Shown here: positions 38,865-57,088 of the stretch, piece after piece
Layout: the number at the start of each line of letters is the position of its first letter
Position numbering within the stretch: position 1 is the first letter of the stretch
DNA from: a virus
IMG/VR virus record: IMGVR_UViG_3300023184_000150
Location: 1-57,429 of that record
Strand: one strand, 5' to 3'
Length of the DNA: 57,429 nucleotides
Program-made: the position numbers and the translations under genes
Notes under the pieces: generated by a model
Database searches by the model: none
What the model was told of the DNA's origin: nothing
Seen by the model: only the letters and a program-made list of their open reading frames with translations

Positions 38865-40133
38865 TTATTTATAATGTGCAGTCTGACCATAGGGTGCAAT
38901 TATGGTTTCGTTGCCGTGAATAATAAACAATGTATCACAGTAATCTTCATCACCCCAGCTGCCGCAAGGATATCCATCAGTGAACATAATGAATTTTTTA
39001 GGTTCAATATTTTGATTCTTCATAAATTCAAAATTCACATCAAAATCAGTACCACCGCCGCCCTTACATTCATAAGATGTAATGTCATCAGCAGAATCTC
39101 CTGAAAAACAAGCATAGTTATAAATCTCTGTGTCAAAGCACCAGAGATCTAATTTAAAATCTTTGTACTCGTCCATAATGCCTTTAACCTCACTGATGAA
39201 ATCTTTAGCCATTGCGTCTGAAATACTACCACTCATGTCAATTGCTACTGAAACATCTACGGTTTCGTCATTCATTAAGCCTGGAAGAATAGCACCGCAA
39301 TGTTGGCTCTTACGATTTGGGCGGTTGAAACTAAAATTGCTTTTTAGAATACTTTGAATATTCATACGCAACATCTGACGCCAATCCATTTTAGGCTCAG
39401 TAAAGTCACCGATCATACGTTGGATACCAGCAGGCACTCGTCCAGCACCTGCAGATTGTGCAGCCGCCACCATTGCCTCTTTGATCTCATCACGGATCTG
39501 TTTCTTTTCCTCAGCGGTTAGTTTAGGACGACCTTTGCCACTACCATCGACATCACCGTCATTCCCACCGCCTTCACTATTACCGTCATCACCGTCATCT
39601 AGATGTTCGTCTAGCAATTCACCTAGTGAAGCAATATCAATCTTATCTGCTTTTTCGTAAAGAATGTCGTAGATTTGTTCATAGCTCATGCCACGATATT
39701 TGTCGTCTTGATAAATTTTAATAAAGTTTGGAACAATGCCAATACGTTCATCTTTTAGAATTTGATTTGTTGCATAGTCTGCGGCAATATTTGACAATAC
39801 AGGATCACGATGATCACGACGACCCATATGATCAAATACATTATGTAGAACTTCATGTGCAAATCCAAACTCTGCTTCTTTAGGAGTTAGTTTATTAACA
39901 AAGCCGTTATTGTAATAAAAGTTACGACCGTCTGTAGCCAATGTACCGCACCAATCAGATGCATCTACCATTTTAAGACGTGTAGCTAAATTGCCAAAGA
40001 ATGGATGACGTAGCAATAGTCCAACACGAGCAGTAATAAGTTTATCTAAGATCTTATTCTTTTCTGTTGTGGTGAATTCTTTGCTGGCCCAATCTTGTTT
40101 TTTAACTTTCTCTGTTTTCATTACTGACGACAT
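38865..40133 (-). CDS. VWA-domain protein with N-terminal zinc-metallopeptidase motif
   Basis: A 422-residue protein. The N-terminal domain (about 1-170) has a HEVLH motif at 93-97, the HExxH zinc signature of the DUF2201-type putative metallopeptidase domain. An acidic Gly-rich linker follows (about 175-200). The C-terminal VWA-like domain has a MIDAS: DMSGS at 299-303, GGGGTDF at 358-364, and a Thr/Asp pair in FTDGYP. Such proteins pair with MoxR-type AAA+ ATPases, and one is encoded immediately upstream. The two genes are separated by a terminator and a promoter, so they can be expressed independently. The partner complex probably remodels or cleaves another protein; the target is unknown. 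Confidence 0.82.
   Translation of the reverse strand: MSSVMKTEKVKKQDWASKEFTTTEKNKILDKLITARVGLLLRHPFFGNLATRLKMVDASDWCGTLATDGRNFYYNNGFVNKLTPKEAEFGFAHEVLHNVFDHMGRRDHRDPVLSNIAADYATNQILKDERIGIVPNFIKIYQDDKYRGMSYEQIYDILYEKADKIDIASLGELLDEHLDDGDDGNSEGGGNDGDVDGSGKGRPKLTAEEKKQIRDEIKEAMVAAAQSAGAGRVPAGIQRMIGDFTEPKMDWRQMLRMNIQSILKSNFSFNRPNRKSQHCGAILPGLMNDETVDVSVAIDMSGSISDAMAKDFISEVKGIMDEYKDFKLDLWCFDTEIYNYACFSGDSADDITSYECKGGGGTDFDVNFEFMKNQNIEPKKFIMFTDGYPCGSWGDEDYCDTLFIIHGNETIIAPYGQTAHYK
38866..38873 (-). promoter_or_regulatory. Perfect T4-type late promoter box
   Basis: TATAAATA on the minus strand, 13 bp before the ATG at 38852. It overlaps the last codons of the VWA gene and would drive the 94-residue gene and the genes to thyA late in infection. 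Confidence 0.6.
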
Positions 40134-40161
40134 AGTGTATCCTTTTAGTGTTCGAGTGTAT

Positions 40162-40190
40162 ATTATACATTAAATTTATCAAAAGAGCAA
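40162..40190 (-). promoter_or_regulatory. Sigma70-type promoter for the VWA gene
   Basis: TTGCTC (40185-40190) and TATAAT (40162-40167) on the minus strand, 17 bp apart, 29 bp before the ATG. Confidence 0.6.
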
Positions 40191-40192
40191 GT

Positions 40193-40213
40193 AAAAAGGG
40201 TCCCTAAGGACCC
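40193..40213 (-). terminator. Rho-independent terminator after the MoxR-type gene
   Basis: On the minus strand GGGTCC, a 4-nt loop TTAG and GGACCC are followed directly by TTTTT. It ends the MoxR transcript just before the VWA promoter. Confidence 0.75.
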
Positions 40214-40217
40214 AATT

Positions 40218-41300
40218 TTAACCTTCCATTGCTTGGATAATGTATTTGCCATACTTCTCATGGAAGCGATCAAAGTTCTTCAACTTACTTGCATCAAACG
40301 GCAGTTCATAACTAGTTAATGCAACTTTGGCACCCATAACAATTAGCTCAGTTGGGAAGTTCTCCATTAAGAATTCGAAGAAGTTATCTGCCATTTCGTC
40401 CCAGCCTTTAACTTTCTTGCGATCTGCTTCTTGCAGTTCGTAACAAAGACTAATGCTCAACGAGTACATTGCAGAGATTTCTTTGATACTAGACTTCTTA
40501 ACCTTACCTGCCAAAATGTCTGAAGGGTTAGGCATCTGTTTAGCAACACGGCGATGAGCCATAAACTTAACAGCAAGACCTTCGCCGACTGCACCTGCAA
40601 TCAAATCAGTTAATGTAGAATCGGACACATCGTCATCTTCAAGCAATTCGCTAACAAAAGACCAAGAACGAGGAGTAGCAAACGCACGACTTGCGGACTT
40701 AGGATCAAAGTCGTATAGGTCTTGTTTAGCAAAGCCCAAGTAACCAACAACTTGTTCATGCAAGCGATTCTTAACAGCCCATTCTTGCCAATCTTCGTAG
40801 TCTGTACGCAATTCCAAATGCAAGAAACGATTAGCTAACGGAGCAGGCATGCGATATGTAACACCTTTGTCAGTTTCACGATTACCTGCTGCTACAATAG
40901 CAACACCTTTTGGTAGTTGATAAGTTCCAACACGACGATTAAGAACCAATTGGAAAGCCGCTGCCTGTGTAGCAGGTGCCGCCGAGTTCAACTCATCCAA
41001 GAAAAGGATAGCAGTTGATTCTGGATCAGTGGGCAATTCTGCAGGAGGAGCCCATGTCATAGTGTTTTCGTTACTATTGTAATATGGAATACCTTTAATG
41101 TCAGTAGGTTCCCAAAGGCTCAAACGTACATCAATTACTTCACGAGCTTGTTCGTCGCCCAGTTGTTTAATGATGTCCGATTTACCAATACCGGGAGGGC
41201 CCCACATGAACACAGGGCGCTGCTTTTTCAAGCATTTACGGATTGCTAGTTTAGCTTCGTTAGGGCTAACGGTACGATTTGCGGAAATTTTCTCTGCCAT
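40218..41300 (-). CDS. MoxR-type AAA+ ATPase
   Basis: A 360-residue AAA+ protein. The Walker A GPPGIGKS is at 34-41, the Walker B AILFLDELN at 97-105, a sensor-1 AAGNRE near 138-143, and arginine-finger-type residues in the PAPLANRF segment. MoxR ATPases act as chaperones for VWA-domain partners, and such a partner lies directly downstream. A consensus host promoter (TTGACA, 17 bp, TATAAT) precedes the gene and a rho-independent terminator follows it. It is therefore a single-gene unit likely to be expressed strongly and early. Confidence 0.9.
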   Translation of the reverse strand: MAEKISANRTVSPNEAKLAIRKCLKKQRPVFMWGPPGIGKSDIIKQLGDEQAREVIDVRLSLWEPTDIKGIPYYNSNENTMTWAPPAELPTDPESTAILFLDELNSAAPATQAAAFQLVLNRRVGTYQLPKGVAIVAAGNRETDKGVTYRMPAPLANRFLHLELRTDYEDWQEWAVKNRLHEQVVGYLGFAKQDLYDFDPKSASRAFATPRSWSFVSELLEDDDVSDSTLTDLIAGAVGEGLAVKFMAHRRVAKQMPNPSDILAGKVKKSSIKEISAMYSLSISLCYELQEADRKKVKGWDEMADNFFEFLMENFPTELIVMGAKVALTSYELPFDASKLKNFDRFHEKYGKYIIQAMEG

Positions 41301-41362
41301 AAAAAACTTTCAGTGGTTTAGTTAATTAAAAATACTATTGCTTCTTGCTGTAGTATGTATTA

Positions 41363-41391
41363 ATTATACTGCATTTTGCTTCTATTGTCAA
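41363..41391 (-). promoter_or_regulatory. Consensus sigma70 promoter for the MoxR-type gene
   Basis: TTGACA (41386-41391) and TATAAT (41363-41368) on the minus strand with 17 bp between. Both hexamers are perfect matches. The leader is about 60 nt. Confidence 0.8.
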
Positions 41392-41396
41392 GTACT

Positions 41397-41777
41397 TTAT
41401 TGTTTTTCAGCAAATCTCTTCTGTGCTCGTTGTAATTTTTGGAGATTTCCTGCAAATAGAACCAGTTGTACAGCCATCTTTTCTCCAAAAAGATATATTT
41501 CTTTGTGGGTTATATAAAATGGACAATCAATATTCCGATCTATCCAAAGCAAAAGTGAGTTATTAACATAAATGGACTCATCAAATTCTACTCTGTGATG
41601 TTTTATACCGGCATCAACCAAGCATTCAAACCCTTTTTCAGTGAGCCATAACCCGCCTTTTTCTTTAAGTCTGATGTTTTGCCAAAATACATGTACTAGT
41701 TTTCTTATAGATTTATCGTCAGTAGCAAGCCCGAGCTGTTCTGCTACATATTTGGTAATTTTAATTTTTGGATTCAT
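41397..41777 (-). CDS. Conserved phage protein of unknown function
   Basis: A 126-residue protein starting at 41777 (MNPKIKITKYV); an alternative ATG lies 15 nt upstream. It has KLVHVFWQNIRLKEKGGLWL, then TEKGFECLVDAGIK, then FGEKMAVQLVLFAGNLQKLQ. I recall similar proteins in T4-like marine phages, without a known role. The helix-rich N-terminus and mixed C-terminus do not match a DNA-binding fold I know. It overlaps the end of the upstream gene by 17 nt, so translation is probably coupled. Confidence 0.6.
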   Translation of the reverse strand: MNPKIKITKYVAEQLGLATDDKSIRKLVHVFWQNIRLKEKGGLWLTEKGFECLVDAGIKHHRVEFDESIYVNNSLLLWIDRNIDCPFYITHKEIYLFGEKMAVQLVLFAGNLQKLQRAQKRFAEKQ

Positions 41778-42060
41778 CGGTGATTTTCTCACCTGTAGTT
41801 AGTTTATACACAGAAAACTCAGTAGAATTGAACATTTTATTTAATTTTTCGGCTAGGTTAAATGCATGTCCGCTGTTAGCAAAGGATACTTTCTTATACT
41901 TTGGACCTACTTCCTGTGCAACCATACTACTGGTTTTTAGATTGATTGGTTTATCTTGATAAAACACAGACCAAACGGCGTCAGATTCCAAAACTTGATC
42001 TGTTTTATATGATTTTTTGTTTGTTATCTCTAACAATACATTAGGTTTAGGTCTTGACAT
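41761..42060 (-). CDS. Small protein of unknown function
   Basis: A 99-residue protein from ATG 42060 (MSRPKPNVLLEI). This start has a TGGAGAG ribosome-binding site and a late box 29 bp upstream; the longer frame to 42120 would overlap the neighbour. The protein is basic with mixed alpha/beta character (AVWSVFYQDKPINLKTSS, then NLAEKLNKMF). I do not recognise it. Confidence 0.55.
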   Translation of the reverse strand: MSRPKPNVLLEITNKKSYKTDQVLESDAVWSVFYQDKPINLKTSSMVAQEVGPKYKKVSFANSGHAFNLAEKLNKMFNSTEFSVYKLTTGEKITDESKN

Positions 42061-42089
42061 TATATACGACTCTCCAAAAAGTGCGTATA

Positions 42090-42097
42090 TATTTATC
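42090..42097 (-). promoter_or_regulatory. Late-type promoter box
   Basis: GATAAATA on the minus strand, 29 bp before the ATG at 42060, a typical late-promoter distance. One mismatch to TATAAATA. Confidence 0.5.
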
Positions 42098-42103
42098 GGA
42101 TTT

Positions 42104-42319
42104 TTAAAACTTTCCACCATCCATTTTTACTTCAATATTAGATGATGCAGCAACAATCTGATCTAATTGACCTGCTAATCGCGCCATAACTATTGATAAG
42201 CTATTTTGTAAATCAGTTGCTTCTTTTATTGTTAAAAGAACAGTTTGTTGATTGCTTTTTATAGCAATTCTAGTCTTATTTAAGAATTCTTCAATTGGAT
42301 ATGTGTTTAGTTGCATCAT
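42104..42319 (-). CDS. Small phage protein of unknown function
   Basis: A 71-residue, mostly helical protein (IEEFLNKTRIAIKSNQQTVL, then IKEATDLQNSLSIVMARL). The ATG overlaps the preceding stop as ATGA; a second ATG follows immediately. It looks like a small conserved protein of T4-like phages. A coiled-coil dimer is plausible. Confidence 0.55.
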   Translation of the reverse strand: MMQLNTYPIEEFLNKTRIAIKSNQQTVLLTIKEATDLQNSLSIVMARLAGQLDQIVAASSNIEVKMDGGKF

Positions 42320-42783
42320 AATTTGTTAATGGTATTTAAAACATTCTTCATTTCCTGCTCTGTTTTGTAGGGACCGTGAAATGGATAGCGTTCTAATGTA
42401 ATTAATTTAGGGCAAAAACTTTTAACCCATCCTTTACGAAATTGAATTACATAATATCCTGCACAATATTGACTTTTGCTCTTAGAACTTTTAGCATACA
42501 ACGGTAATTTTTTCTTTACATTATACACAGGTTCAAATGGTTTTGAGCTGCATGGGTAATTGTAAATAGTATATGTGAGCGGCTCTATTTCAAAAGTATG
42601 TTTAATACTGTTATTATCAAGAGTTTCGACTATGTCTTTATAATTTTTAATACTAATCATTTGACCTTTACGTAAGAATATATATCCTTTTTTGTTCTTA
42701 GCAATAGATCCAATCTTTTTACCTGAATCTTCAATGATCCATTCTTTATTGGGAATTAATACTTTTGAAATTACTGCATTCAT
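42316..42783 (-). CDS. Conserved phage protein of unknown function
   Basis: A 155-residue basic protein. Aromatic/basic segments such as KKKLPLYAKSSKSKSQYCAG and GWVKSFCPKLITLERYPFHG stand out; I recall related hypothetical proteins in cyanophages. Two to three Cys are present but no clear metal site. Its ATG overlaps the RNase H stop as ATGA, so it is coupled to the replication nuclease gene. Confidence 0.6.
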   Translation of the reverse strand: MNAVISKVLIPNKEWIIEDSGKKIGSIAKNKKGYIFLRKGQMISIKNYKDIVETLDNNSIKHTFEIEPLTYTIYNYPCSSKPFEPVYNVKKKLPLYAKSSKSKSQYCAGYYVIQFRKGWVKSFCPKLITLERYPFHGPYKTEQEMKNVLNTINKL

Positions 42784-43772
42784 GCTATATACCTCGCATT
42801 TAGTGGTTCTGCATAACTTTGCACCTGTTCGCTGATTTTGTTTAGATCATATTCAGAGCATAGTTTAAGCAATCTTACTCCAACTTGTGGAATATTTTTT
42901 TCTGCTTGTGTAGCAGTATCTATTGTTTCTTTAATTAACTCTTTAATGTTATCCGGTTGTGCTGTTAAATCGCACAGTTGTACATTACGAGTGTAATCAT
43001 CTAATACACGATGCTCGACACCTTCGTGGTCAGACCAACGTTGCAACATGAGATTGTTCCAATTATAGCCTTTGGATTCTCTGTCGGCAAAGGCATCACG
43101 GAGACCAACTTTATTCTTTGTGCCTTTCTCACGTACTCCCGGATAAGCACTAAAGATGTTGTCAGAGGTGTCTCCACGCATACACTTTTCAAAGAGTAAC
43201 CATGCTGGGTCTGGTGCGCCTTTTGGCAAATTAGTTTTTTTATCTTTAACAGGCTTACCTTTTTCATCAAAGTATCCCTCGTGTGTAGTTGTAATCTGCA
43301 TTACACCATTATATTGGCGAACATTTGGTGCAACAAGTTGTGCAAAATCTCCATCTGTTGAAATAATAATATGATTGTCAGCAGGATGACTTTGAATCCA
43401 TCCTGCAATTAAATCATCTGCTTCTAATTGCTGATGTTGTAATACTGTACAGTTAGTCTTGTTAGTAATATAATCTTTAAACTCGTCAAACGTTTCCCAA
43501 AATACACGATCTTCTTCTGCTTCTCTTGGACTTTGAGCAGCACGGGCTTCTGTACGTTGCCGTTTGTAAGGAGCATATATGTCCTTTCGCCATGATCGAC
43601 CTTCTAAAAAGAAGATAACATGATCACCTTTAAAGTCGCGCCATGCTTTACGAACACTACCCAATACAGTAGCAAGACTCATACCAATCTTATCATTTAG
43701 ATCACCGCGAGTAGCGTGTCTTGCACGGAAGAATGTATTTGCTGTATCTACTAAGATGTATGTTTTATTCAT
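42780..43772 (-). CDS. rnh: RNase H / 5'-3' exonuclease (T4 rnh-like, FEN family)
   Basis: A 330-residue flap-nuclease-family enzyme that removes RNA primers from lagging-strand fragments. Acidic metal ligands are visible in LVDTANTFFRA (N-terminus), LEADDLIAGWI, and ISTDGDFAQL. MRGDTSDNI precedes the helical clamp segment. The PYKRQR basic arch is near residue 70. The length fits T4 RNase H (305). It is coupled by TAATG to the upstream gene. Confidence 0.92.
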   Translation of the reverse strand: MNKTYILVDTANTFFRARHATRGDLNDKIGMSLATVLGSVRKAWRDFKGDHVIFFLEGRSWRKDIYAPYKRQRTEARAAQSPREAEEDRVFWETFDEFKDYITNKTNCTVLQHQQLEADDLIAGWIQSHPADNHIIISTDGDFAQLVAPNVRQYNGVMQITTTHEGYFDEKGKPVKDKKTNLPKGAPDPAWLLFEKCMRGDTSDNIFSAYPGVREKGTKNKVGLRDAFADRESKGYNWNNLMLQRWSDHEGVEHRVLDDYTRNVQLCDLTAQPDNIKELIKETIDTATQAEKNIPQVGVRLLKLCSEYDLNKISEQVQSYAEPLNARYIA

Positions 43773-44176
43773 TAAGAAATTTCCGATCTACCGTCACCTA
43801 AATTATTAACATTAATGTAACCACTTCCTCGGCGATCCATATTAATATCTGCCTCACTCCCGATATTCCTGCATAGATCCTGAAACCATTGATCAACAAT
43901 AGATTCCTCGGTATCACCCTGATAGCCGTTACTTTTTAATTGTAACACAAAATACTCGTTCCAGTCAAGTTCAAAAAAACCATTGCGAATATTATCTTTA
44001 TTGACATGTGTATCAAGAACTGCTACCCACGGTTCTTTCTTTTCTGTAGCAATCTCTTTGGCTGTTTTCTGTTTCTTTGCTTTTGGTACTACTTCTTTAA
44101 GTTCCGGTACTAAAGGCTCCTCTACCACCGACTGCTTGTCTTTAATGCCAAATAAATTTTTAATAAATTTTTTCAT
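43772..44176 (-). CDS. Conserved phage protein of unknown function
   Basis: A 134-residue protein. A hydrophobic/basic N-terminus MKKFIKNLFG is followed by a Lys/Glu linker and a conserved C-terminal domain (NGFFELDWNEYFVLQLKSNG, then DQWFQDLCRNIGSE, then RRGSGYINV). Relatives occur in T4-like cyanophages. The start is ambiguous: 44176 has an AAGAGA site, whereas an ATG at 44224 overlaps the QueE stop as TAATG and would add 16 residues. Function unknown. Confidence 0.62.
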   Translation of the reverse strand: MKKFIKNLFGIKDKQSVVEEPLVPELKEVVPKAKKQKTAKEIATEKKEPWVAVLDTHVNKDNIRNGFFELDWNEYFVLQLKSNGYQGDTEESIVDQWFQDLCRNIGSEADINMDRRGSGYINVNNLGDGRSEIS

Positions 44177-44223
44177 TCTATTTTCTCTTGGTATGTATAT
44201 AACGGCTTGATCTAGGATACCCA

Positions 44224-45078
44224 TTAAGTTCCCCACTCATTTTTAAAGAGTGGTACTTGTAGTCTATCACTATATCGTAGTCCATGTTTCATTGCTAGTA
44301 ATGCTACATTACGATTGTTCATGGCATACACACTTTCAACTCCGCCTACTGGCATTAGATAAACATGTCCTGTAAATCCTGCACTACGATATGCGGCAAT
44401 GGCACACTCGGCATCAGCAAAGTCTTGTTCTGTGGCAATAACAAACTTCAAATATGCTGTGCCATATTCTTCATACTCACATACACGGTCAGGTTTAATA
44501 GCATCTTCCCACGCTTCACCACTGCATGGTAATTTAGCACTTACGCTAAATGTAACGTCTCTATAGAAGTCAATATCATCAGAATGATATTTCCATGTAT
44601 GCAAATATTGTTTAAATTCTTTTGTTAGACGAAATGTACCATTTGTCTCAAATGTAATTTCTTTAAGACCTTTCATCTTAGGATGACTTAGTAAGTCTGG
44701 ATATTGTTTTTGCCAACCTAACAATGGCTCACCCCCAGTAATAACTAGATGCTCATCACGCCATTCACCGTGTGGAAGAATTTCCATAATGCGTTCTATA
44801 ATTGCATCTGTCGTAAGCAATGGACTTAGGTCTTTAAAACGTGGATCCCAACTTGCATAACTATCACATCCTGTGCTAACTAGTGGCAACATTTTATAAT
44901 CTGTATATTTGATTGGATCTATATTATTTGCTTCTTCGCTTAGTTCACCACGTGGCATACCAAACCCTGCACATTTAAAGTTACATCCGAATGTACGTAA
45001 GAAAACAGAAGGAACACCCATATAGCGTCCTTCACCTTGAATTGAATAGAATAGTTCTGCTATTTTGATTTTTGACAT
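44224..45078 (-). CDS. queE: 7-carboxy-7-deazaguanine synthase QueE
   Basis: A 284-residue radical-SAM enzyme converting 6-carboxy-tetrahydropterin to 7-carboxy-7-deazaguanine, the committed step to preQ0. The QueE signature FYSIQGEGRYMG is at the N-terminus, with C32xxxC36 and then CDSYASW (C71), ITGGEPLL, and an ETNGT block. The third cluster cysteine is 34 residues after the second instead of the usual two, so the cluster loop carries an insertion. A host-type promoter (TTGACT, 16 bp, TATAAT) lies just upstream. In phages this pathway feeds DNA modification, in line with the DpdA-like gene nearby. Confidence 0.88.
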   Translation of the reverse strand: MSKIKIAELFYSIQGEGRYMGVPSVFLRTFGCNFKCAGFGMPRGELSEEANNIDPIKYTDYKMLPLVSTGCDSYASWDPRFKDLSPLLTTDAIIERIMEILPHGEWRDEHLVITGGEPLLGWQKQYPDLLSHPKMKGLKEITFETNGTFRLTKEFKQYLHTWKYHSDDIDFYRDVTFSVSAKLPCSGEAWEDAIKPDRVCEYEEYGTAYLKFVIATEQDFADAECAIAAYRSAGFTGHVYLMPVGGVESVYAMNNRNVALLAMKHGLRYSDRLQVPLFKNEWGT

Positions 45079-45096
45079 ATTAAACCTCGATAAGTA

Positions 45097-45124
45097 ATTA
45101 TATACTTTTATTTAGAAAAGTCAA
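45097..45124 (-). promoter_or_regulatory. Sigma70-type promoter for queE
   Basis: TTGACT (45119-45124) and TATAAT (45097-45102) on the minus strand, 16 bp apart, in the 62-bp divergent gap with the radical-SAM gene. Confidence 0.65.
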
Positions 45125-45140
45125 CCCTATTGAATAAAAT

Positions 45141-46067
45141 ATGCGAACAGAAATAATATGGAATTTACACGATCATTGTAAATCACAATGCACATACTGC
45201 CCTACTAGATTTTGGGGAGGAGAAACCCCCCATCATATATCTGAATATTTAGAAATTACACAAAAAATAATAGATCATTATACATCGTTGGGTAGAAAAA
45301 TTGATTGGACATTTAACGGCGGCGAACCTTTAGACATGTTTGATTTTCCTATGCTATTAAAATTATGTAAAGAACATGATGGCACAATTAGTTTAAACTC
45401 CAACGGAGGTAGAATGTGGCTTGATTGGTGGGCCATTGAACCACACATTGATAATCTTAATCTTACATATCACTATTGGCAAAAACCTGCACTTATTAAA
45501 TTTATTTTAGATACATTTAAAAATAAGGACAAGCATGTGAATATAAATGTACCAATTCGTCCAGATTATTTTGAAGAAGATATGCAAAGAGCATTAGATG
45601 TAGAAGCCAACCATGAAATAACTGTTGGAAAATCAGTACTATATAACGAAGCAGATACAGCGGCTGGGATGTTTCAATACACCCCTAAACAATTAGCAAT
45701 AATATCAGGAGTTGAGTTTATTGAACCTTCTATCATTACAGAAATAGAAAAAGAAGAAGAAATTAAAAAGATAGAAATTATTCCGTTAGTAATTGAACAG
45801 AAACATTTTAAAACTACTACATTTAAAGAAAGATTTGAAGAAAAACTGGCCGCAAATTTAGGATATACAGGTATGCTATGTAACTCAGGAATTGAATATC
45901 TTAGTATATCTCATAATGGATGGGCAACCGGCAGTAATTGCAATAATAGACCACTAGGCAATATATGGGATGTTAATTTTTTATTACCTAGTAATGCTCA
46001 TACCTGCACAATGATGCATTGCATATCTCCGAGAGATCAACAAATTACTAAATTTAAATCTACTTAA
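45141..46067 (+). CDS. Radical-SAM/SPASM-type enzyme of unknown substrate
   Basis: A 308-residue protein. The radical-SAM cluster motif C13xxxC17xxC20 (CKSQCTYC) and a GGEP motif at 60-63 are near the N-terminus. The C-terminus has several further cysteines (LCNSGIEYLSI, then NGWATGSNC, then LGNIWDV and HTCTMMHC), the pattern of a SPASM/twitch auxiliary-cluster domain. It is the only rightward gene in a 20-kb leftward region. It starts divergently from queE, and its last 8 nt overlap the convergent glycosyltransferase gene. SPASM enzymes modify peptides or complex small molecules; here a DNA-base or peptide substrate is possible. I see no strong ribosome-binding site. Confidence 0.8.
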   Translation: MRTEIIWNLHDHCKSQCTYCPTRFWGGETPHHISEYLEITQKIIDHYTSLGRKIDWTFNGGEPLDMFDFPMLLKLCKEHDGTISLNSNGGRMWLDWWAIEPHIDNLNLTYHYWQKPALIKFILDTFKNKDKHVNINVPIRPDYFEEDMQRALDVEANHEITVGKSVLYNEADTAAGMFQYTPKQLAIISGVEFIEPSIITEIEKEEEIKKIEIIPLVIEQKHFKTTTFKERFEEKLAANLGYTGMLCNSGIEYLSISHNGWATGSNCNNRPLGNIWDVNFLLPSNAHTCTMMHCISPRDQQITKFKST

Positions 46068-47130
46068 AATTTTCTAGTAATTTATTTGCACTAAAAAAAT
46101 TAGTAGTCAAATCTCTAGTTTGTGCTAATAATTTAGGAAGACGTGTCTCATAGTGATCCATATGCTGACAAATAGCGAAACATAGATTAGGTCTATGATT
46201 CTTATACGCTTCAAAACTTTCAGTCCATTTGCTAGGATATTTAAATGTGTCATAATACATCTCAGTATAACTTAAACGATCGGGAACTAATGGAATAGCA
46301 CCTACTAATGCACCTTCATAACAACTGATGCCAAGTGTTTCTTGTAGATTGGCACTGAACACCATTTTTGCTTCACCTAACAAATTATGATATTCATTCT
46401 TTGTTAGTTCTTGATCTTGACAAACTACAAATTCGTATTGTGGCAACTGTTCTTTTAAATCACGGAAGATCTCGACTTGCTTCTCAGGTGCAATACGATG
46501 CGGGAACAAAATAAGATCACGCTTTTTCATGCCCTTGTATAAGTTTAAAGTATTATCCATATACTCCATCGGCCAACCAGTGCGTACAATTTTACCTTGT
46601 TCGATCATGGACATCTTCCATTCTTCATCTAATGTTTCGCTAAACGTTTTAGCAAACAGGTCAATATGAAAGTCTGTAGCAAAGTAGTTGTGATCGATGG
46701 CGTGGAAGTAACTTTGTTCAGCGTGTCTTACCCAGGGAGCATCACCAATGAGACGTCCTAAAAAGTCTTGAGGGTCATAACTACCAGCATGCCATAATCC
46801 ATGTATAGTTACAGGAATGCCGAGAAGTCTGGCCATGTACTTGAGATTGATGACACCAGGGTGCCAAGCATCAGTAAATACAAAATGATCACCTGGGCGA
46901 ACGGCTCCGTTGCAAAATAGCCGGCCCATCTGCTCAACCTGACTAGCCTTGTATATATTAGTTCCGCCAAAATTAAGAAAAGCACCAGGGGTAGTAGCAG
47001 CAGGGATATCAGTAGGTCCAGAAATAACTTGAACATTGTGTCCAGCCTTTCGTAAGAGATTAGGTACATGGTCTTTCCATTGACCAGTGTACCTTGTCGA
47101 GACTGCTTCAATATCGACTACGTAGATCAT
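46060..47130 (-). CDS. GT4-like glycosyltransferase
   Basis: A 356-residue protein with two-lobed GT-B character. The C-terminal lobe has ILFPHRIAPEKQ and the EX7E motif (ETLGISCYEG) typical of GT4 retaining transferases, followed by VPDRLSYTEM. The start at 47130 (MIYVVDIEAV) is chosen because it follows the upstream stop by one base. A longer frame to 47253 would overlap the upstream gene in another frame and is a shadow. The location between queE and the DpdA-like gene suggests a nucleobase or DNA acceptor, but a cell-surface sugar acceptor cannot be excluded. Confidence 0.75.
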   Translation of the reverse strand: MIYVVDIEAVSTRYTGQWKDHVPNLLRKAGHNVQVISGPTDIPAATTPGAFLNFGGTNIYKASQVEQMGRLFCNGAVRPGDHFVFTDAWHPGVINLKYMARLLGIPVTIHGLWHAGSYDPQDFLGRLIGDAPWVRHAEQSYFHAIDHNYFATDFHIDLFAKTFSETLDEEWKMSMIEQGKIVRTGWPMEYMDNTLNLYKGMKKRDLILFPHRIAPEKQVEIFRDLKEQLPQYEFVVCQDQELTKNEYHNLLGEAKMVFSANLQETLGISCYEGALVGAIPLVPDRLSYTEMYYDTFKYPSKWTESFEAYKNHRPNLCFAICQHMDHYETRLPKLLAQTRDLTTNFFSANKLLENFK

Positions 47131-47131
47131 A

Positions 47132-47368
47132 TCAACGTTGATTGTATGGACGAGGGTTATTCCCCTTGTACTCAGTACGTGGCCTACGTTCTCCACCGTT
47201 ACTCCAACGTTGGAAGTTACGGTATTCTTGACTACGATATAGATCGCCTTCATTAAATGGTAGAAGATTAAACCTGCAATGATCTAACCAAGCCTCAAGA
47301 TCATCAAAGATCTTAGATACTTCTGGTTTCATTTTAAGAGTTTTTTGAATGTAAGCGGGTTGCGCCAT
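47132..47368 (-). CDS. Small conserved phage protein
   Basis: A 78-residue protein. The N-terminal half (KPEVSKIFDDLEAWLDHCRF, then NLLPFNEGDLYRS) is a pattern I recall from T4-like cyanophage hypothetical proteins. The C-terminus is Arg/Asn-rich and looks disordered, suitable for nucleic-acid contact. It has an AGGAAA ribosome-binding site. It is tightly placed between the QueD-like and glycosyltransferase genes. Confidence 0.65.
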   Translation of the reverse strand: MAQPAYIQKTLKMKPEVSKIFDDLEAWLDHCRFNLLPFNEGDLYRSQEYRNFQRWSNGGERRPRTEYKGNNPRPYNQR

Positions 47369-47384
47369 TTTAAGTTTTTCCTAT

Positions 47385-47768
47385 TTAAAGGGAGTTGTTG
47401 AAAAGAAGTGAAGCGCCGTTTTCGCCGTCTTCACTTACATCGATAATGGTCTTACGACCGGGGTACCTTGTAGTAATTGTCGTGTTAAGATCACGAGCAA
47501 TCATTTCACAAGATTTGTGGTTGAGTTCAAGAATGCCATCATTGTAGCACTTCTCAAGCCAACGCTTAAACTGAATAAATTCAATATCGCGGTCATCTTG
47601 AAAGACCTCAATAAAAACTTTAAAGTGGAAAATATGTCGATGTGGTGTTCCAAGGAAACTAACATCATATTCATCGCCTGTGGCCAACTTAGGATCAGTT
47701 GCGGCTGCGGGATACATATGGATACCTTCTTTACGGAAGGTAACCCAAATCATTGATTGATCGTTCAT
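47385..47768 (-). CDS. QueD/PTPS-like T-fold protein
   Basis: A 127-residue protein whose middle and end follow the 6-pyruvoyl-tetrahydropterin synthase layout: H43-R-H45 followed by FHFKVFIEV (compare the HGH zinc strand), DIEFIQFKRWLEK (compare the DFGDLK strand), NHKSCEMIARDL (compare the PTxENLA helix), and a terminal SEDGENGASLLF. QueD makes the substrate of QueE, which is encoded nearby. The usual catalytic Cys before the HxH motif is not seen, so activity is uncertain. The ATG overlaps the upstream stop as ATGA. Confidence 0.5.
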   Translation of the reverse strand: MNDQSMIWVTFRKEGIHMYPAAATDPKLATGDEYDVSFLGTPHRHIFHFKVFIEVFQDDRDIEFIQFKRWLEKCYNDGILELNHKSCEMIARDLNTTITTRYPGRKTIIDVSEDGENGASLLFNNSL

Positions 47769-47947
47769 TCTGATGTTTTCTTAGCTACAGTTTTTAGAGG
47801 TTTAGGAGTCTTAGTCTTTTCAGGAAGATTATCTTTCATCATATTCATCATTTCCCAAAGTTTCCAATCCATGCTTTCAAGCAATTTGAATAGACGTTCT
47901 TCTGTAGTTTCTTGTTTTGCTTGTTTAGTTAGCTTTGCATTAATCAT
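47765..47947 (-). CDS. Small conserved phage protein
   Basis: A 60-residue protein with an amphipathic helical core (ERLFKLLESMDWKLWEMMNM) and a Lys/Pro-rich tail. Both ends are coupled by 4-nt ATGA overlaps, to the 170-residue gene upstream and to the QueD-like gene downstream, which argues that it is translated. I recall a similar core in T4-like marine phages. Function unknown. Confidence 0.65.
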   Translation of the reverse strand: MINAKLTKQAKQETTEERLFKLLESMDWKLWEMMNMMKDNLPEKTKTPKPLKTVAKKTSE

Positions 47948-48456
47948 TTTATTACCTCATCGTTTTTGTATTGATTCCAGTCTGTAAATTTACTACGATC
48001 CATAAGTGTATGCAGACTGTGGGACCATACACCGGGATTAGTTGCTTTAAAATCTTTATCATCAATTTTAATCATTGTGTTGTAATTCCACAATTTAATA
48101 TAAGGAAGTGGTATACGAATTTGTGGAATAAAATTGTTAAATTCATTACAACCGTTTTCTAGAAATTCTTCTGCTAAGTTGATTGGAATATCAAGACTGC
48201 ATATATATTCTTTTTTTAGAAAGAACTCAATCATTGAGTCCCAACTTCTCCACTCATCATAGTTTGTGGGATTAAAACTATGATTAGCACCAAAGAAGAT
48301 ATGCTCCGCACCATTTAAGTTTTTAGCAATATCTTCAAAAGATTGAAGACCTGTAACAAATAATGTTTTCATTCCAAATGCAGGAGTATGCTCAACCTCT
48401 GTTCCAATAAAAAATTGAGCAGTATCTGATTCGCCAGTTATATAATTACGTTTCAT
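47944..48456 (-). CDS. Conserved phage protein next to the 7-deazaguanine genes
   Basis: A 170-residue protein with a conserved alpha/beta look: FFIGTEVEHTPAFGMKTLFV, then IFFGANHSFNP, then IKIDDKDFKATNPGVWSHSL. I recall homologues in T4-like cyanophages with no assigned function. It is the first gene of a coupled set (170-residue, 60-residue and QueD-like genes) driven by a host-type promoter at 48463-48491. The company suggests a role in the modified-base pathway, but nothing in the sequence names an activity. Confidence 0.65.
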   Translation of the reverse strand: MKRNYITGESDTAQFFIGTEVEHTPAFGMKTLFVTGLQSFEDIAKNLNGAEHIFFGANHSFNPTNYDEWRSWDSMIEFFLKKEYICSLDIPINLAEEFLENGCNEFNNFIPQIRIPLPYIKLWNYNTMIKIDDKDFKATNPGVWSHSLHTLMDRSKFTDWNQYKNDEVIK

Positions 48457-48462
48457 AATATT

Positions 48463-48491
48463 AGTATAGCAGAATTATTATTCAAATGCAA
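48463..48491 (-). promoter_or_regulatory. Sigma70-type promoter of the QueD-like operon
   Basis: TTGCAT (48486-48491) and TATACT (48463-48468) on the minus strand, 17 bp apart, ending 6 bp before the ATG-containing region of the 170-residue gene. The leader is therefore very short. Confidence 0.55.
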
Positions 48492-48495
48492 TAGC

Positions 48496-50040
48496 TTATT
48501 CAGCCAATCTGTTTTCAAGTGCTCTATATTTTGGATCTTCAACATCTTCTGTATCTACTTCTAATGAAGTTGTAATATTTTCAATTTCAAACAAATTGTT
48601 AAATGTGTTTTGAGCAGGACCACCTTGCATTCTAGAACCTTCGAGACTTCTTAAGAAATTTAATCCTTCTTCGATCATTTTAAATGCTTCTACTTTTGAT
48701 TTAGTGTTAAACAATTCTTCAACAAATCGATCAAAGTAAAGAATATTACGTGGTACCCAATCGCTATATTGATCACCTGCAATATCTTTAGAACTAAGTT
48801 TATTCCAATGTCTCCAGTCTGGTTTAAATCTAGTAGTTTCAATATCTGCTAACTGATTAGCACGTTGTACAGCAACAATGTGGCATTCAACATTATGACC
48901 CATCATTAGGGCATAAGCAAAACTATCCCATGATGTTTTACCTTCTTTCTTAATCTTGTTCAACATGCCAGGAGCATAGTGACAAATATCGCCCATTGTT
49001 AATCTGCGACCGAATTCGCTTTCGAATGGGAATGGTATGTCTGATTCTGCAAGTGCTTTGTTGTCTGGGGCTTTGTCCATAATAACACTCCACCTTTTTG
49101 TGGTGTGTTGTGCATTGGTATAGACAAGTCCGTGCGCTGTTGCGATAAACGGTGAGGCGCAGTCAAAAGATACGGTAAAGTTTTCATTGATATGTTTTCT
49201 GATTTGTCGTTGTATTGAAGTCAAATATACAGCCCAATCTAATTGTGCTGTGCCTAGGAAGTGCATCCAGTCTTTACCATTAAGCAAACCTTCGTCTCTA
49301 AGAGTCATTAGTCGCTTTAAAGTAATATCCATCTTGCACATATTAGCGCCACCCATGGCCCAACCTTCTGCGGCTTTATCGCCCCATACTGCTGGATCGC
49401 TAAATTCTTTTACTCCATTATACCACTTCTCAGCAGTATCCCAATCGTTACCTTGGAGAACATTTAAAAACTTTGTAAGTCCTTGCCTATTATCTAGGAA
49501 GAACTTGTTGTTATATTTTGTTTTATTTAAACAGTCATCGAATGTTTTCAAGCCAGTCTTAGGACTGTGAATATGATCACATGCCCAAGTAGGAACGTCT
49601 AACATCATTGACCAATCGGCGGTTAGTTCAAGCCAATCTAAAATTTGTTTTCGAGTTTTAGTTGCGGCAGGACCTTCAAAGTTTAACCAATCAAATTTAA
49701 GAACACCTTTACCAATTTGATATCCACCTGAGTCACCTAAGATCATAGTGTTGTTTCGATCTCGTTGTTGTATCATTGATTCTTGAATAACACTTTTATT
49801 AAGATCTAATTGTGCATGACCTGCTGAATACAAACCATATTTGTATGTGAAATATCCATCTTCGGGATTTAAAAAATTCATACCTTCAATACCACGATCA
49901 AATCCTTTAGGAATACGATCATCAGGTATGAATTTTTCTAATCTTTGTTTAGCGATGTATGTACTATAAAAAGAACTAATTGCTGGCAAATATACTGCAT
50001 AGTCTTTTTGTAGTGGTGTTAGATTAAGGTGTCTTTTCAT
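48496..50040 (-). CDS. DpdA-like DNA transglycosylase (tRNA-guanine transglycosylase family)
   Basis: A 514-residue TIM-barrel protein of the TGT superfamily. The base-recognition Asp103 is in LGDSGGYQIG, an LDVPTW block near 148-152 corresponds to the TGT base-binding loop, GWAMGG at 226-231 matches the GG-loop, FLGTAQ near 261-266 corresponds to YLMGVG, and the nucleophile Asp293 is in SFDCASPF. Members acting on DNA (DpdA) swap guanine for 7-deazaguanines. The CxCxxC zinc site of bacterial TGT is not visible. QueE and a QueD-like gene lie within 5 kb, which supports the DNA-modification reading over a tRNA one. Confidence 0.75.
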   Translation of the reverse strand: MKRHLNLTPLQKDYAVYLPAISSFYSTYIAKQRLEKFIPDDRIPKGFDRGIEGMNFLNPEDGYFTYKYGLYSAGHAQLDLNKSVIQESMIQQRDRNNTMILGDSGGYQIGKGVLKFDWLNFEGPAATKTRKQILDWLELTADWSMMLDVPTWACDHIHSPKTGLKTFDDCLNKTKYNNKFFLDNRQGLTKFLNVLQGNDWDTAEKWYNGVKEFSDPAVWGDKAAEGWAMGGANMCKMDITLKRLMTLRDEGLLNGKDWMHFLGTAQLDWAVYLTSIQRQIRKHINENFTVSFDCASPFIATAHGLVYTNAQHTTKRWSVIMDKAPDNKALAESDIPFPFESEFGRRLTMGDICHYAPGMLNKIKKEGKTSWDSFAYALMMGHNVECHIVAVQRANQLADIETTRFKPDWRHWNKLSSKDIAGDQYSDWVPRNILYFDRFVEELFNTKSKVEAFKMIEEGLNFLRSLEGSRMQGGPAQNTFNNLFEIENITTSLEVDTEDVEDPKYRALENRLAE

Positions 50041-50043
50041 ATT

Positions 50044-51021
50044 TTATTTAATTTTGTCATACCAGTATTTTAGCATATCAGACAACGTTTGGTCTATATT
50101 AATGGTTGGTTTCCATTTTGTTAAATTAACTAAATCAAAAGAATCACCATGCTGATAATGAATATCAATAGGGCGATAAAAATTAGGATTTATTTCTTGC
50201 TTAACGTCTTTAACTCCACTTATTTCGATTAGTTTAGTTGTAAAATATTGCATTTTTTGTGGTTCATCTCCACACACATTAAAAATATTACCATTTACAT
50301 TTTCGTTAATCATTGAAAGATAGTATGCATTTACTGTATCTCTAACATCAAGGACAACTCTTACACTTTCTAAATTACCAACCTGCAATATAGGTTCTTG
50401 ATATCCTTTCATCATACGGGCAATTTGATATGCATCAGATGAGATTGAAAAATTCTTACCTCTTCTTGGGCCTGTATGAGAAAATGCACGGGTAATAAAA
50501 CCTTTAATTTTACCATTGACCATTCGTTCTTGCATATAAAGGTCAGTTGCTGCTTTTGATGCTCCGTAGGGATTTGAAGGTAAAATTGCATCATTAATTG
50601 TAATTTTACGTCCGTCTATCCCAATATTTCCATATACTTCTGACGTAGAACAAAACATTAATTTACAATCTGGTTGATAATCAGATATAACTTGTATTAA
50701 ATTAGCAGACCCTATAATGTTATCTTCAAAAGTACCAATTGGATCAATAAAACTTGATGGAGGATGCGACTGTGCCGCAAGATGAAATACACCATCGAAT
50801 TTATATTTTTTAAAAATTTGTTCTAAAACACGAAGATTATTTAGATTTGAATATAAAAATTTAATATCTTTATAAACATTATCCGGAACAATGTCTTGTA
50901 TGTCCGTCTCCATACCATTAGTACCTCGTATTAATCCATATACGTTATGTCCATTAGCATGTAATAAGTTTGCAAGATGAGGTCCTGCGAAGCCTGTTAT
51001 ACCTGTAATCAAAAAATTCAT
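50044..51021 (-). CDS. NDP-sugar dehydratase/reductase (GDP-mannose 4,6-dehydratase-like SDR)
   Basis: A 325-residue extended short-chain dehydrogenase. The NAD(P) motif GITGFAG is at 7-13, S125-T-S in the active-site strand, and the catalytic Y152xxxK156 in NPYGASKAATD. FITRAFSHTGPRRGKNF, then the VLDVRDTVNAYY block, are typical of GDP-mannose 4,6-dehydratase and GDP-4-keto-6-deoxymannose reductase. It would make a deoxyhexose donor, a possible partner for the glycosyltransferase at 46060-47130. The next gene downstream is the DpdA-like gene, after 3 nt. Confidence 0.85.
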   Translation of the reverse strand: MNFLITGITGFAGPHLANLLHANGHNVYGLIRGTNGMETDIQDIVPDNVYKDIKFLYSNLNNLRVLEQIFKKYKFDGVFHLAAQSHPPSSFIDPIGTFEDNIIGSANLIQVISDYQPDCKLMFCSTSEVYGNIGIDGRKITINDAILPSNPYGASKAATDLYMQERMVNGKIKGFITRAFSHTGPRRGKNFSISSDAYQIARMMKGYQEPILQVGNLESVRVVLDVRDTVNAYYLSMINENVNGNIFNVCGDEPQKMQYFTTKLIEISGVKDVKQEINPNFYRPIDIHYQHGDSFDLVNLTKWKPTINIDQTLSDMLKYWYDKIK

Positions 51022-55565: not shown

Positions 55566-56108
55566 TTATAAACGAGCGTCTATAATGTTCCAATTGATAA
55601 TTTTCCAATGATTAGTTAGATAACCTTTTTTGTCTGCAAGGTAATCAATGTTGAAGGCATGCTCCCACCAATCTATTAGCAGTATAATATCATTTTTAAT
55701 TTGGTGATTAGTGATAGTTTTGATCTCACCATTACGAGCAAGATAGACCCATCCACTGCCCTGTATTGCCATAGCAACTTTGGTAAATTCATCTTTGAAG
55801 TTTTCAAATGATTTAAAATGTTTGTCAATAAATTCTTTGGATGTACCAATTGGTGTATTGTCCTCATCTGGAATCTGTAATTGTGGAAAATACATGCTAT
55901 GTAAGTACGCACCTGCTTCATTGAAGTCTAAATCGCCTTCACCGGAATTGAAACGATTAACATAAGTTCTATATAGTTTGCCATAATGATAATCTATAGC
56001 ATCCTCACTTAGCACAGGTTCTAGAGCATCGCGGGCATAGGATAACTTCACTTGTTCAAGTGTTTTAATCTCCTTACCTTCTACTACATATTTTATAAAA
56101 TTAAACAT
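55566..56108 (-). CDS. Fe/Mn-type superoxide dismutase homologue
   Basis: A 180-residue protein following the Fe/Mn-SOD layout: an N-terminal LEPVLSEDAIDYHYGK with ligand-type H41, NEAGAYLHSMYF with H70, GSGWVYLA (compare GSGWTWL), and IDWWEHAF with D146 and H150, then DYxxxKxxYL. All four metal-ligand positions are present. SOD converts superoxide to oxygen and peroxide. The protein is shorter than host enzymes (about 200). It is coupled by TAATG to the metallopeptidase-like gene. It could protect the infected cell from oxidative stress, or be a repurposed structural fold. Confidence 0.75.
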   Translation of the reverse strand: MFNFIKYVVEGKEIKTLEQVKLSYARDALEPVLSEDAIDYHYGKLYRTYVNRFNSGEGDLDFNEAGAYLHSMYFPQLQIPDEDNTPIGTSKEFIDKHFKSFENFKDEFTKVAMAIQGSGWVYLARNGEIKTITNHQIKNDIILLIDWWEHAFNIDYLADKKGYLTNHWKIINWNIIDARL

Positions 56109-56797
56109 TATTTGTTTTTACCAGATCTCATATTAGCCATCCAATGTGCAAGTTGTCCCTTACGACCGCCTTGATGTGCTATCTTACGTAATGTACTTAT
56201 CTTTCCTTTGGTAGGAACATGATAACGCTTTGAGTCGCCTTTATCTTCAGGATGGCGGCCATCGGCAAAGTTTTCTTTTTGTGTAGGAATATGATTTGGA
56301 CCGTAACTTATCCTACTGCCTACAATTTGTTCTAATCCAACATGTAATGCAGGTCCTGATAAATGTTTTCGTAGCCATTTTTCTGCTAGATTGTTTATAA
56401 TTTTTTCGTTAGCATGAACAACGCCACCTTGACTTTTACTATGAACATACGCATGATATGCTTCGTGTGCCGCCTGTGCTACATCTTTTGCTGCTTTGCT
56501 GTCTAAGTTTGGTAAGTTGATACTGCCCACTCCGTCCCCTGTATCTCTAAACATAGGAGGCCCGCTGCTTTGATAAACATAATACATTCCGGGTCCTAAC
56601 TCGTCATCGTCATCAGTTACTCGATCTCTTCCTAAGATATTTTGAATTACGTCATATGCTGTCCATAGTGTAGGAGCAGGTGCGCCACCAACATGTGTTG
56701 TTGGAAGCATAGGTTTATCTTCTGGATCAAAATCACCGTAACGTGCTTTTAAATCTGCATCACTTGCAAGAGCCTCAAGTAATTCATTGATACGCAT
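56108..56797 (-). CDS. Zinc-metallopeptidase-like protein with capsid-targeting-like N-terminus
   Basis: A 229-residue protein. HEAYH at 111-115 is the HExxH zinc motif within a helix (AQAAHEAYHAYVH); the third ligand is not obvious, and NEKIINNLAEKWL with a conserved Glu follows. The N-terminus MRINELLEA resembles T4 capsid-targeting sequences and has a gp21-type cleavage pattern (LLE followed by Ala). The C-terminus is basic. I infer a protein packaged in the head and possibly injected. It starts immediately after the stop of the small basic gene. Confidence 0.65.
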   Translation of the reverse strand: MRINELLEALASDADLKARYGDFDPEDKPMLPTTHVGGAPAPTLWTAYDVIQNILGRDRVTDDDDELGPGMYYVYQSSGPPMFRDTGDGVGSINLPNLDSKAAKDVAQAAHEAYHAYVHSKSQGGVVHANEKIINNLAEKWLRKHLSGPALHVGLEQIVGSRISYGPNHIPTQKENFADGRHPEDKGDSKRYHVPTKGKISTLRKIAHQGGRKGQLAHWMANMRSGKNK

Positions 56798-57088
56798 TTA
56801 GCAATTCCATTTTCTTAATGATAATGCTTTGCGTGTAGGTTCGCCGTTAGGCTTTTTCATAGGACCATCAACCCCGCCCATCCTTGCACAGAATGATTTA
56901 CGGCGTTTAGCATCTTTACTACCTGCTTTCAATTTGCTTGGTTTAGTAGTAACTGCTGTTTGTAGTTTGCTACCAGGGTGCTCTCTACGATAACTAGCAA
57001 CACCTTTGGCATTTAGTCCGCCAGACTTGCTTTTGCCGGCCTTACGATGCCAAGCAGCAGATTCATTTATAAACTCGTATGCTCTCAT
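56798..57088 (-). CDS. Small basic conserved phage protein with capsid-targeting-like N-terminus
   Basis: A 96-residue, very basic protein. SFCARMGGVDGPMKKPNG, then EPTRKALSLRKWNC, is a C-terminal block I recall as widely conserved in marine phages (DUF6321-type), with no known function. Two or three Cys might bind metal. The N-terminus MRAYEFINES resembles the T4 capsid-targeting sequence (MKTYQEFIAE-type) with a possible INE|S cleavage site. The ATG overlaps the stop of the upstream 17-codon frame as ATGA. Confidence 0.7.
   Translation of the reverse strand: MRAYEFINESAAWHRKAGKSKSGGLNAKGVASYRREHPGSKLQTAVTTKPSKLKAGSKDAKRRKSFCARMGGVDGPMKKPNGEPTRKALSLRKWNC

What the first reader, a model, noticed from the sequence alone, without database searches (positions are those of the whole stretch)
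56108..57088. Capsid-targeting-like N-termini on a metallopeptidase and a small basic protein
MRINELLE|A and MRAYEFINE|S resemble the T4 targeting sequence (MKTYQEFIAE|A) and both show an I/L-x-E cleavage pattern suited to the gp21 prohead protease. Two adjacent genes carrying such tags suggests packaged, injectable effectors, one of them a putative protease.
Basis: partly seen in the sequence, partly recalled or inferred. Interest (0 to 1): 0.65.

Follow-up and report, generated by a model that had tools for sequence, protein, structure and literature searches.

The report
Head-packaging tags on jumbo-phage cargo proteins
Three neighbouring genes of a giant bacterial virus start with a short peptide "address label" like the one phage T4 uses to load helper proteins into its head, so the virus probably carries a small basic protein, a protease-like protein and a superoxide-destroying enzyme in its head and perhaps into the cell it infects.

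Summary
Both genes exist and begin MRAYEFINE|S and MRINELLE|A. Across IMG/VR relatives this N-terminal form marks 246 of 3,366 gene starts against 8 of 12,137 internal methionines. The terminal Glu is invariant while the rest of the tag varies. The prohead protease gp21 (S77) occurs in relatives, and their gp23 carries the same L-x-E|S/A site. DUF6321 copies from contigs with no detected S77 have Lys, not Glu, at that position, and 0 of 220 neighbouring genes are tagged. In the published virion proteome of cyanophage S-CREM2, 5 of 6 proteins with the T4-form tag were detected, P=0.003. The third gene of the cassette, an Fe-superoxide dismutase, has its own tag-like extension; 50 of 52 distinct N-termini of relatives carry an aliphatic-x-E site. 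The best reading is capsid-targeting propeptides like those of T4 internal proteins. Packaging and cleavage are well supported by inference; injection and effector function are not shown. "Metallopeptidase" rests on an HEA[YC]H motif only: no family match and no significant fold match. This is a new variant of a known kind.

The parts
57062..57088 (-). CTS-like N-terminal tag MRAYEFINE of the DUF6321 protein; predicted cut INE|S
   Evidence: Glu9 invariant in 19 homologues while residues 2-8 vary; residue before the module is Glu in 37/37 tag-adjacent copies
56798..57088 (-). 96-aa basic protein, DUF6321 (PF19846), phrog_4689
   Evidence: pI 10.8
56774..56797 (-). CTS-like N-terminal tag MRINELLE of the 229-aa protein; predicted cut LLE|A
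   Evidence: Glu8 invariant in 20 homologues
56108..56797 (-). 229-aa protein with HEAYH motif (putative zincin) plus C-terminal basic module
   Evidence: AlphaFold2 pLDDT 73; Foldseek without significant hit
56453..56467 (-). HEAYH motif (residues 111-115), HEA[YC]H in homologues, followed by invariant NEKI at residues 130-133
56111..56272 (-). C-terminal basic module NFADGRHPEDKGDSKR...KGQLAHWMANM, found on many other proteins and alone behind a tag
   Evidence: pI 10.8
55566..56108 (-). Fe/Mn superoxide dismutase (PF02777 E 6e-23) with the usual metal ligands
   Evidence: ligand positions read from the sequence
56079..56108 (-). CTS-like N-terminal extension MFNFIKYVVE of the SOD, predicted cut VVE|G (P3 is Val here; Leu/Ile in many relatives)

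Best explanation
The window ends in a three-gene cassette of a T4-like jumbo myovirus whose products carry short N-terminal capsid-targeting propeptides that work like those of the T4 internal proteins. Each precursor docks through its 8-10-residue tag on the scaffold core of the prohead. The prohead protease gp21 then cuts after the [I/L/V]-x-Glu at the end of the tag and frees the protein inside the head, where it is packed with the DNA and probably ejected at infection. Basic modules (DUF6321 and the ENFADG...LAHWMANM module) probably hold cargo on DNA; the enzyme-like parts (HEAYH protein, SOD) would act at the start of infection. Gene structure, tag conservation and its link to gp21-type head maturation are shown in relatives; packaging is inferred, with published virion proteomics of other phages in support; injection and function are inference.
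For: 1) Tag enrichment at gene starts. 2) The terminal Glu is invariant while tag sequence and length vary. When 45-115 residues are inserted, a new tag appears at the new N-terminus (L005, L012, L018, L020, L022, L028, L199). 3) S77 in 14 of 50 relative records, with gp23 sites YLAE|S, YLAE|A, YLSE|S at the place of T4 FLTE|A. Tagged small proteins in two of these genomes resemble the gp23 sequence after the cut (MKIQEIITE|TATAGSTSASN against gp23 YLAE|SATAGSTSAGN). 4) DUF6321 without a tag (MAK|TAAW) has Lys at the position; no S77 was found in 10 of 10 such records while 11 of 14 S77 records are tagged (Fisher P 1.5e-4), and 0/220 neighbours are tagged against 89/565. Pelagivirus copies are tagless in complete genomes without S77. 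5) S-CREM2 virion mass spectrometry: T4-form tags on SAM hydrolase, kinase, cytidylyltransferase and two unknown proteins, 5 of 6 detected (P 0.003; 2e-4 among proteins not annotated structural). The NMNAT/cytidylyltransferases of S-SCSM1, S-SZBM1 and S-SM1, reported in virions, also start with such tags. 6) SOD relatives: 50 of 52 distinct N-termini hold the site, some as plain tags (MKLNDFLIE|A, MKLHDFLTE|D). 7) T4 precedent: a 10-residue CTS suffices for packaging and gp21 cuts at L/I-x-E (PMC9026906).
Against: No proteome exists for this phage, and gp21, gp22 and gp23 are not in the window. Two of the tags are one or two residues shorter than the T4 CTS, so the T4 positions 4 and 7 do not map exactly. 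The SOD copy in the window has Val at P3. The internal junction of the 229-aa protein (TQKE|N) does not fit the rule. One of 6 tag matches in S-CREM2 and one of 2 in S-SCSM1 were not detected in virions. In S-SM1 and S-P4 DUF6321 sits at the C-terminus of a large protein without a tag. Most S77-negative records are fragments.
Confidence: 0.82

Rival explanations
1. The tags dock proteins into the prohead and are cut, but the products stay in the particle as core or DNA-condensing components and are not injected effectors.
For: DUF6321 is small and very basic; in Pelagivirus phages it lies between scaffold and capsid genes; cyanophage GC119 proteins that end in DUF6321 lie near the terminase small-subunit gene in S-SM1 and the S-P4 copy is annotated structural.
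Against: The companions are enzyme-like: an SOD with its metal ligands, a HEAYH protein, and in relatives a deaminase fold, cytidylyltransferase and zeta-toxin-like kinase, which have no obvious structural role. T4 precedent favours ejection.
Confidence: 0.35
2. The N-terminal motif is another kind of signal (membrane-binding helix, degradation tag or binding site for a phage chaperone) that only resembles a CTS.
For: Short amphipathic hydrophobic N-termini can serve several purposes; no direct cleavage data here.
Against: Glu at P1 and S/A at P1' match the gp23 site of relatives' genomes; absent where no gp21 was found; enriched in virion proteomics.
Confidence: 0.08
3. Chance or codon-level similarity of A/T-rich gene starts.
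For: The pattern is short and gene starts are compositionally biased.
Against: 8/12137 at internal Met against 246/3366 at starts; 0/220 starts in tagless DUF6321 contigs; conserved Glu across homologues.
Confidence: 0.03

Closest known systems
T4 internal proteins IPI, IPII, IPIII and Alt with the capsid targeting sequence
   Same: Short N-terminal propeptide ending in hydrophobic-x-Glu; diverse unrelated bodies behind a conserved tag; prohead protease gp21; T4 ipII and ipIII start MKTYQEFIAE.
   Different: Tags are mostly 8-9 residues (M[KR]xxE[FIL][IL]xE) instead of 10; they sit on many more protein kinds, including SOD, a HEAYH protein and basic modules also found as domains of larger proteins.
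Virion-associated non-structural proteins of cyanomyoviruses (NMNAT, kinase, SAM hydrolase)
   Same: Enzymes found in purified virions; here shown to carry T4-form tags.
   Different: Published work noted their presence but, in the passages read here, did not link it to a targeting sequence (PMC10665884, PMC9602691).
Ejection proteins of phiKZ/SPN3US-type giant phages
   Same: Cut after Glu by a gp21 relative and packed in the head.
   Different: Their propeptides are much longer (over 100 residues in several) (PMC5694885).
RaK2-like (group 2.2) jumbo phages such as Atu_ph07
   Same: Nearest cultured relatives by DNA polymerase include Atu_ph07 (45%); S77 present; arrays of genes with similar N-termini.
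   Different: No homologue of the 229-aa protein found in cultured phages.

Membership tests
T4-type capsid targeting sequence (CTS) | Short N-terminal propeptide of about 10 residues at the very N-terminus | tested here: met
   9, 8 and 10 residues in the three genes; the tag stays at the extreme N-terminus when inserts are present
T4-type capsid targeting sequence (CTS) | gp21 consensus L/I-x-E at the end of the tag | tested here: met
   INE|S and LLE|A in the two reported genes; SOD has VVE|G, with L/I at P3 in many relatives
T4-type capsid targeting sequence (CTS) | Targeting residues at positions 4 and 7 of the 10-residue T4 form | tested here: inconclusive
   Two of the window tags are shorter, with shifted spacing; the SOD tag has F4 and Y7 as in the 10-mer form
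T4-type capsid targeting sequence (CTS) | Prohead protease gp21 (S77) in the same phage | tested here: inconclusive
   Window is a fragment without head genes; 14 of 50 relative records hold S77, including large ones with tagged homologues
T4-type capsid targeting sequence (CTS) | Tagged protein found inside virions | not testable with these tools
   No proteome for this phage; supported by association in S-CREM2
T4-type capsid targeting sequence (CTS) | Tag removed in mature virions | not testable with these tools
   Needs N-terminal peptide mapping
HExxH zinc metallopeptidase (zincin) | Conserved HExxH with a candidate third ligand | tested here: met
   HEA[YC]H with His, Glu and His conserved in 20 homologues; invariant NEKI downstream could give a Glu ligand
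HExxH zinc metallopeptidase (zincin) | Significant match to a peptidase family or fold | tested here: not met
   Pfam and PHROGs none; Foldseek best E 0.12 with zinc peptidases among the weak hits
Fe/Mn superoxide dismutase | Sod_Fe domains and four metal ligands | tested here: met
   PF02777 E 6e-23 and PF00081 E 1e-11; ligands read by eye in YHYGK, YLHSM and DWWEH

The most novel reading that the evidence does not exclude
T4-like jumbo phages and cyanophages use a general, swappable head-loading code to ship a large cargo of enzymes and basic modules, including a superoxide dismutase and a putative protease. Some cargo is built as polyproteins whose modules are separated by prohead-protease sites and released inside the head. 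Support: Glu directly precedes internal DUF6321 copies in 22 of 26 and internal ENFADG modules in 21 of 21 cases, usually with an aliphatic residue two positions earlier.
Probability: 0.4. Interest if true: 0.8.

Novelty: new variant of a known kind. Interest (0 to 1): 0.6.

Why it matters
If right, the head-packaged and probably injected protein cargo of a large group of uncultured phages can be read directly from gene starts. That turns 'which phage proteins enter the cell with the DNA' into a testable list, offers an explanation for why enzymes such as NMNAT, kinases and SAM hydrolase appear in cyanophage virions, and points to an unexpected cargo, superoxide dismutase.

Tried and rejected
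Megablast of the window end against phage records and tblastn of the 229-aa protein (and its C-terminal half) against cultured phages: no match. A first strict pattern (M[KR]..E..) found nothing in S-CREM2; that lineage uses the T4 10-mer form. The 10-mer pattern used for the Fisher test was written after seeing those N-termini, so its P value is optimistic, though it follows the T4 consensus. S-SCSM1 alone is too small a test: two tagged starts, one in the virion. PA5oct 'ESI-MS/MS' notes include thymidylate synthase and FtsH, so the flag on its SOD is weak evidence for virion presence. RaK2 and Atu_ph07 proteome lists are in supplements that could not be read. The structure of DUF6321 was low confidence (pLDDT 61) and was not searched. 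Other kinds of N-terminal signal were considered and have no supporting feature here.

Full report
OBSERVATION. Two minus-strand genes at the end of the window, 57088-56798 and 56797-56108, encode proteins starting MRAYEFINE|SAAWHRK and MRINELLE|ALASD. The first is a DUF6321 protein (PF19846); the second has no Pfam or PHROG family. A third gene, 56108-55566, overlaps the second by one base and is a Fe/Mn superoxide dismutase. The window is a 57-kb virus fragment. Its DNA polymerase is nearest to jumbo phages: Sinorhizobium Phosso, Agrobacterium Atu_ph07 and Salicola SCTP-2, 42-51% identity. I saw tail, baseplate and replication genes in it but no head genes.

THE TAG IS REAL. I fetched relatives from IMG/VR. 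In the loci of the first two searches plus large relatives, 246 of 3,366 gene starts match the tag pattern against 8 of 12,137 internal methionines. The loci are biased towards relatives of these proteins; three large relatives read nearly whole give 19 of 942 genes against 2 of 3,818 internal Met. P1' was not constrained by the pattern and is Ser or Ala in half of the distinct tags. In alignments the terminal Glu is invariant (Glu8 of the 229-aa protein in 20 sequences, Glu9 of DUF6321 in 19) while the tag around it varies from MRAYEFINE to MKVHEIVSE to MKTYKEFLFE. In several relatives a 45-115-residue insert separates the body from the N-terminus and a fresh tag stands at the new start, MKSHEFVVE or MRAHEFITE.

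LINK TO GP21. Peptidase S77 was found in 14 of 50 relative records. gp23 of three of these genomes has YLAE|S, YLAE|A and YLSE|S at the place of the T4 FLTE|A site. Tagged small proteins in two of these genomes resemble gp23 after the cut as well (TATAGSTSASN, SATAGATSA). DUF6321 also occurs without a tag, as MAK|TAAW; the residue before the module is then Lys in 12 of 16 copies classed as N-terminal and untagged, including all of the MAK form. Ten such records have no detected S77, and none of 220 genes in such loci is tagged, against 89 of 565 in tagged loci. Many of these records are fragments, but complete Pelagivirus genomes behave alike: no S77 and a tagless DUF6321, lying between scaffold and capsid genes.

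LINK TO VIRIONS. For cyanophage S-CREM2, 52 virion proteins are listed by mass spectrometry (PMC10665884). Six of 219 genes start with a tag of the T4 10-mer form, and five are in the virion: SAM hydrolase, kinase, cytidylyltransferase and two unknown proteins (P 0.003, or 2e-4 among proteins not annotated structural). The pattern was settled after I had seen these N-termini, so P is optimistic. The cytidylyltransferases of S-SM1 and S-SZBM1 and the NMNAT of S-SCSM1, reported in virions, start with tags too. T4 work shows that ten such residues suffice for packaging and that gp21 cuts at L/I-x-E (PMC9026906).

THE SOD IS PART OF IT. The window SOD has a short extension before the usual start, MFNFIKYVVE|G, with Val at P3. 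Among 52 distinct N-termini of relatives, 50 hold an aliphatic-x-E site there, and some are plain tags (MKLNDFLIE|A, MKLHDFLTE|D). The four metal ligands are present by inspection.

THE 229-AA PROTEIN. HEA[YC]H is conserved in all 20 homologues and is followed by an invariant NEKI. AlphaFold2 gave pLDDT 73; Foldseek had no significant hit, but M32 carboxypeptidases, IrrE and other HExxH enzymes are common in the weak list. I call it a putative zincin and no more. Its last 54 residues are a separate basic module that occurs behind a tag alone or on other proteins.

MODULES AND OTHER CARGO. Bodies found behind tags include a deaminase fold, cytidylyltransferase-like, zeta-toxin-like kinase, GNAT-like (weak) and lysozyme domains. 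Internal DUF6321 copies are preceded by Glu in 22 of 26 cases and internal ENFADG modules in 21 of 21, often with Leu, Val or Ile two residues earlier. This suggests protease-released modules, but a conserved Glu could also belong to the domain, and the junction in the window protein (QKE|N) does not fit.

CONCLUSION. The N-termini most likely work like T4 capsid-targeting sequences. Shown: the genes, the tag and its conservation, and the association with gp21-type phages. Inferred: packaging and cleavage in this phage. Speculative: injection and what each cargo does. For the SOD, a likely role is to remove superoxide at the start of infection.

Noticed in passing
L373:19485-30593 (Agrobacterium phage Atu_ph07, record 39484-50592): A tandem array of about eleven minus-strand genes nearly all starting M[RK]W.QL.E or a close form (MRWEQLTE|S, MKWHQLTE|A), many with a YRG motif downstream; the first has a zeta-toxin-like kinase domain. 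By gene number it probably lies in the CDS 31-76 region that the authors found rich in virion proteins.
   Followed up: partly
L099:5574-5987, L180:12628-13014, L079:5012-5428: A second family of small tagged proteins; one member has a weak PHROG metallo-protease match.
   Followed up: partly
L226:1483-1728 and L227:783-1028: Pelagivirus DUF6321 genes lie between scaffold and capsid genes and have no tag.
   Followed up: partly
S-CREM2 gp12, L218:7704-10313: The virion Cas9-like protein has a tag-like LRFASFMAE|A about 17 residues after the annotated start; the start may be misannotated.
   Followed up: no
window:38865-41300: MoxR-like ATPase next to a vWA-like protein with an N-terminal HExxH motif (both by my reading), a pair described for group 2.2 jumbo phages (PMC7824862).
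   Followed up: no
window:48496-50040 and 44224-45078: A protein with a DSGGYQ motif (tRNA-guanine-transglycosylase-like by my reading) and a QueE-like radical SAM protein, which may point to 7-deazaguanine modification of phage DNA.
   Followed up: no
L112:2662-3309: A tagged LysM plus Phage_lysozyme2 protein (MKSFEFLSE|A), an unusual candidate for head cargo.
   Followed up: no
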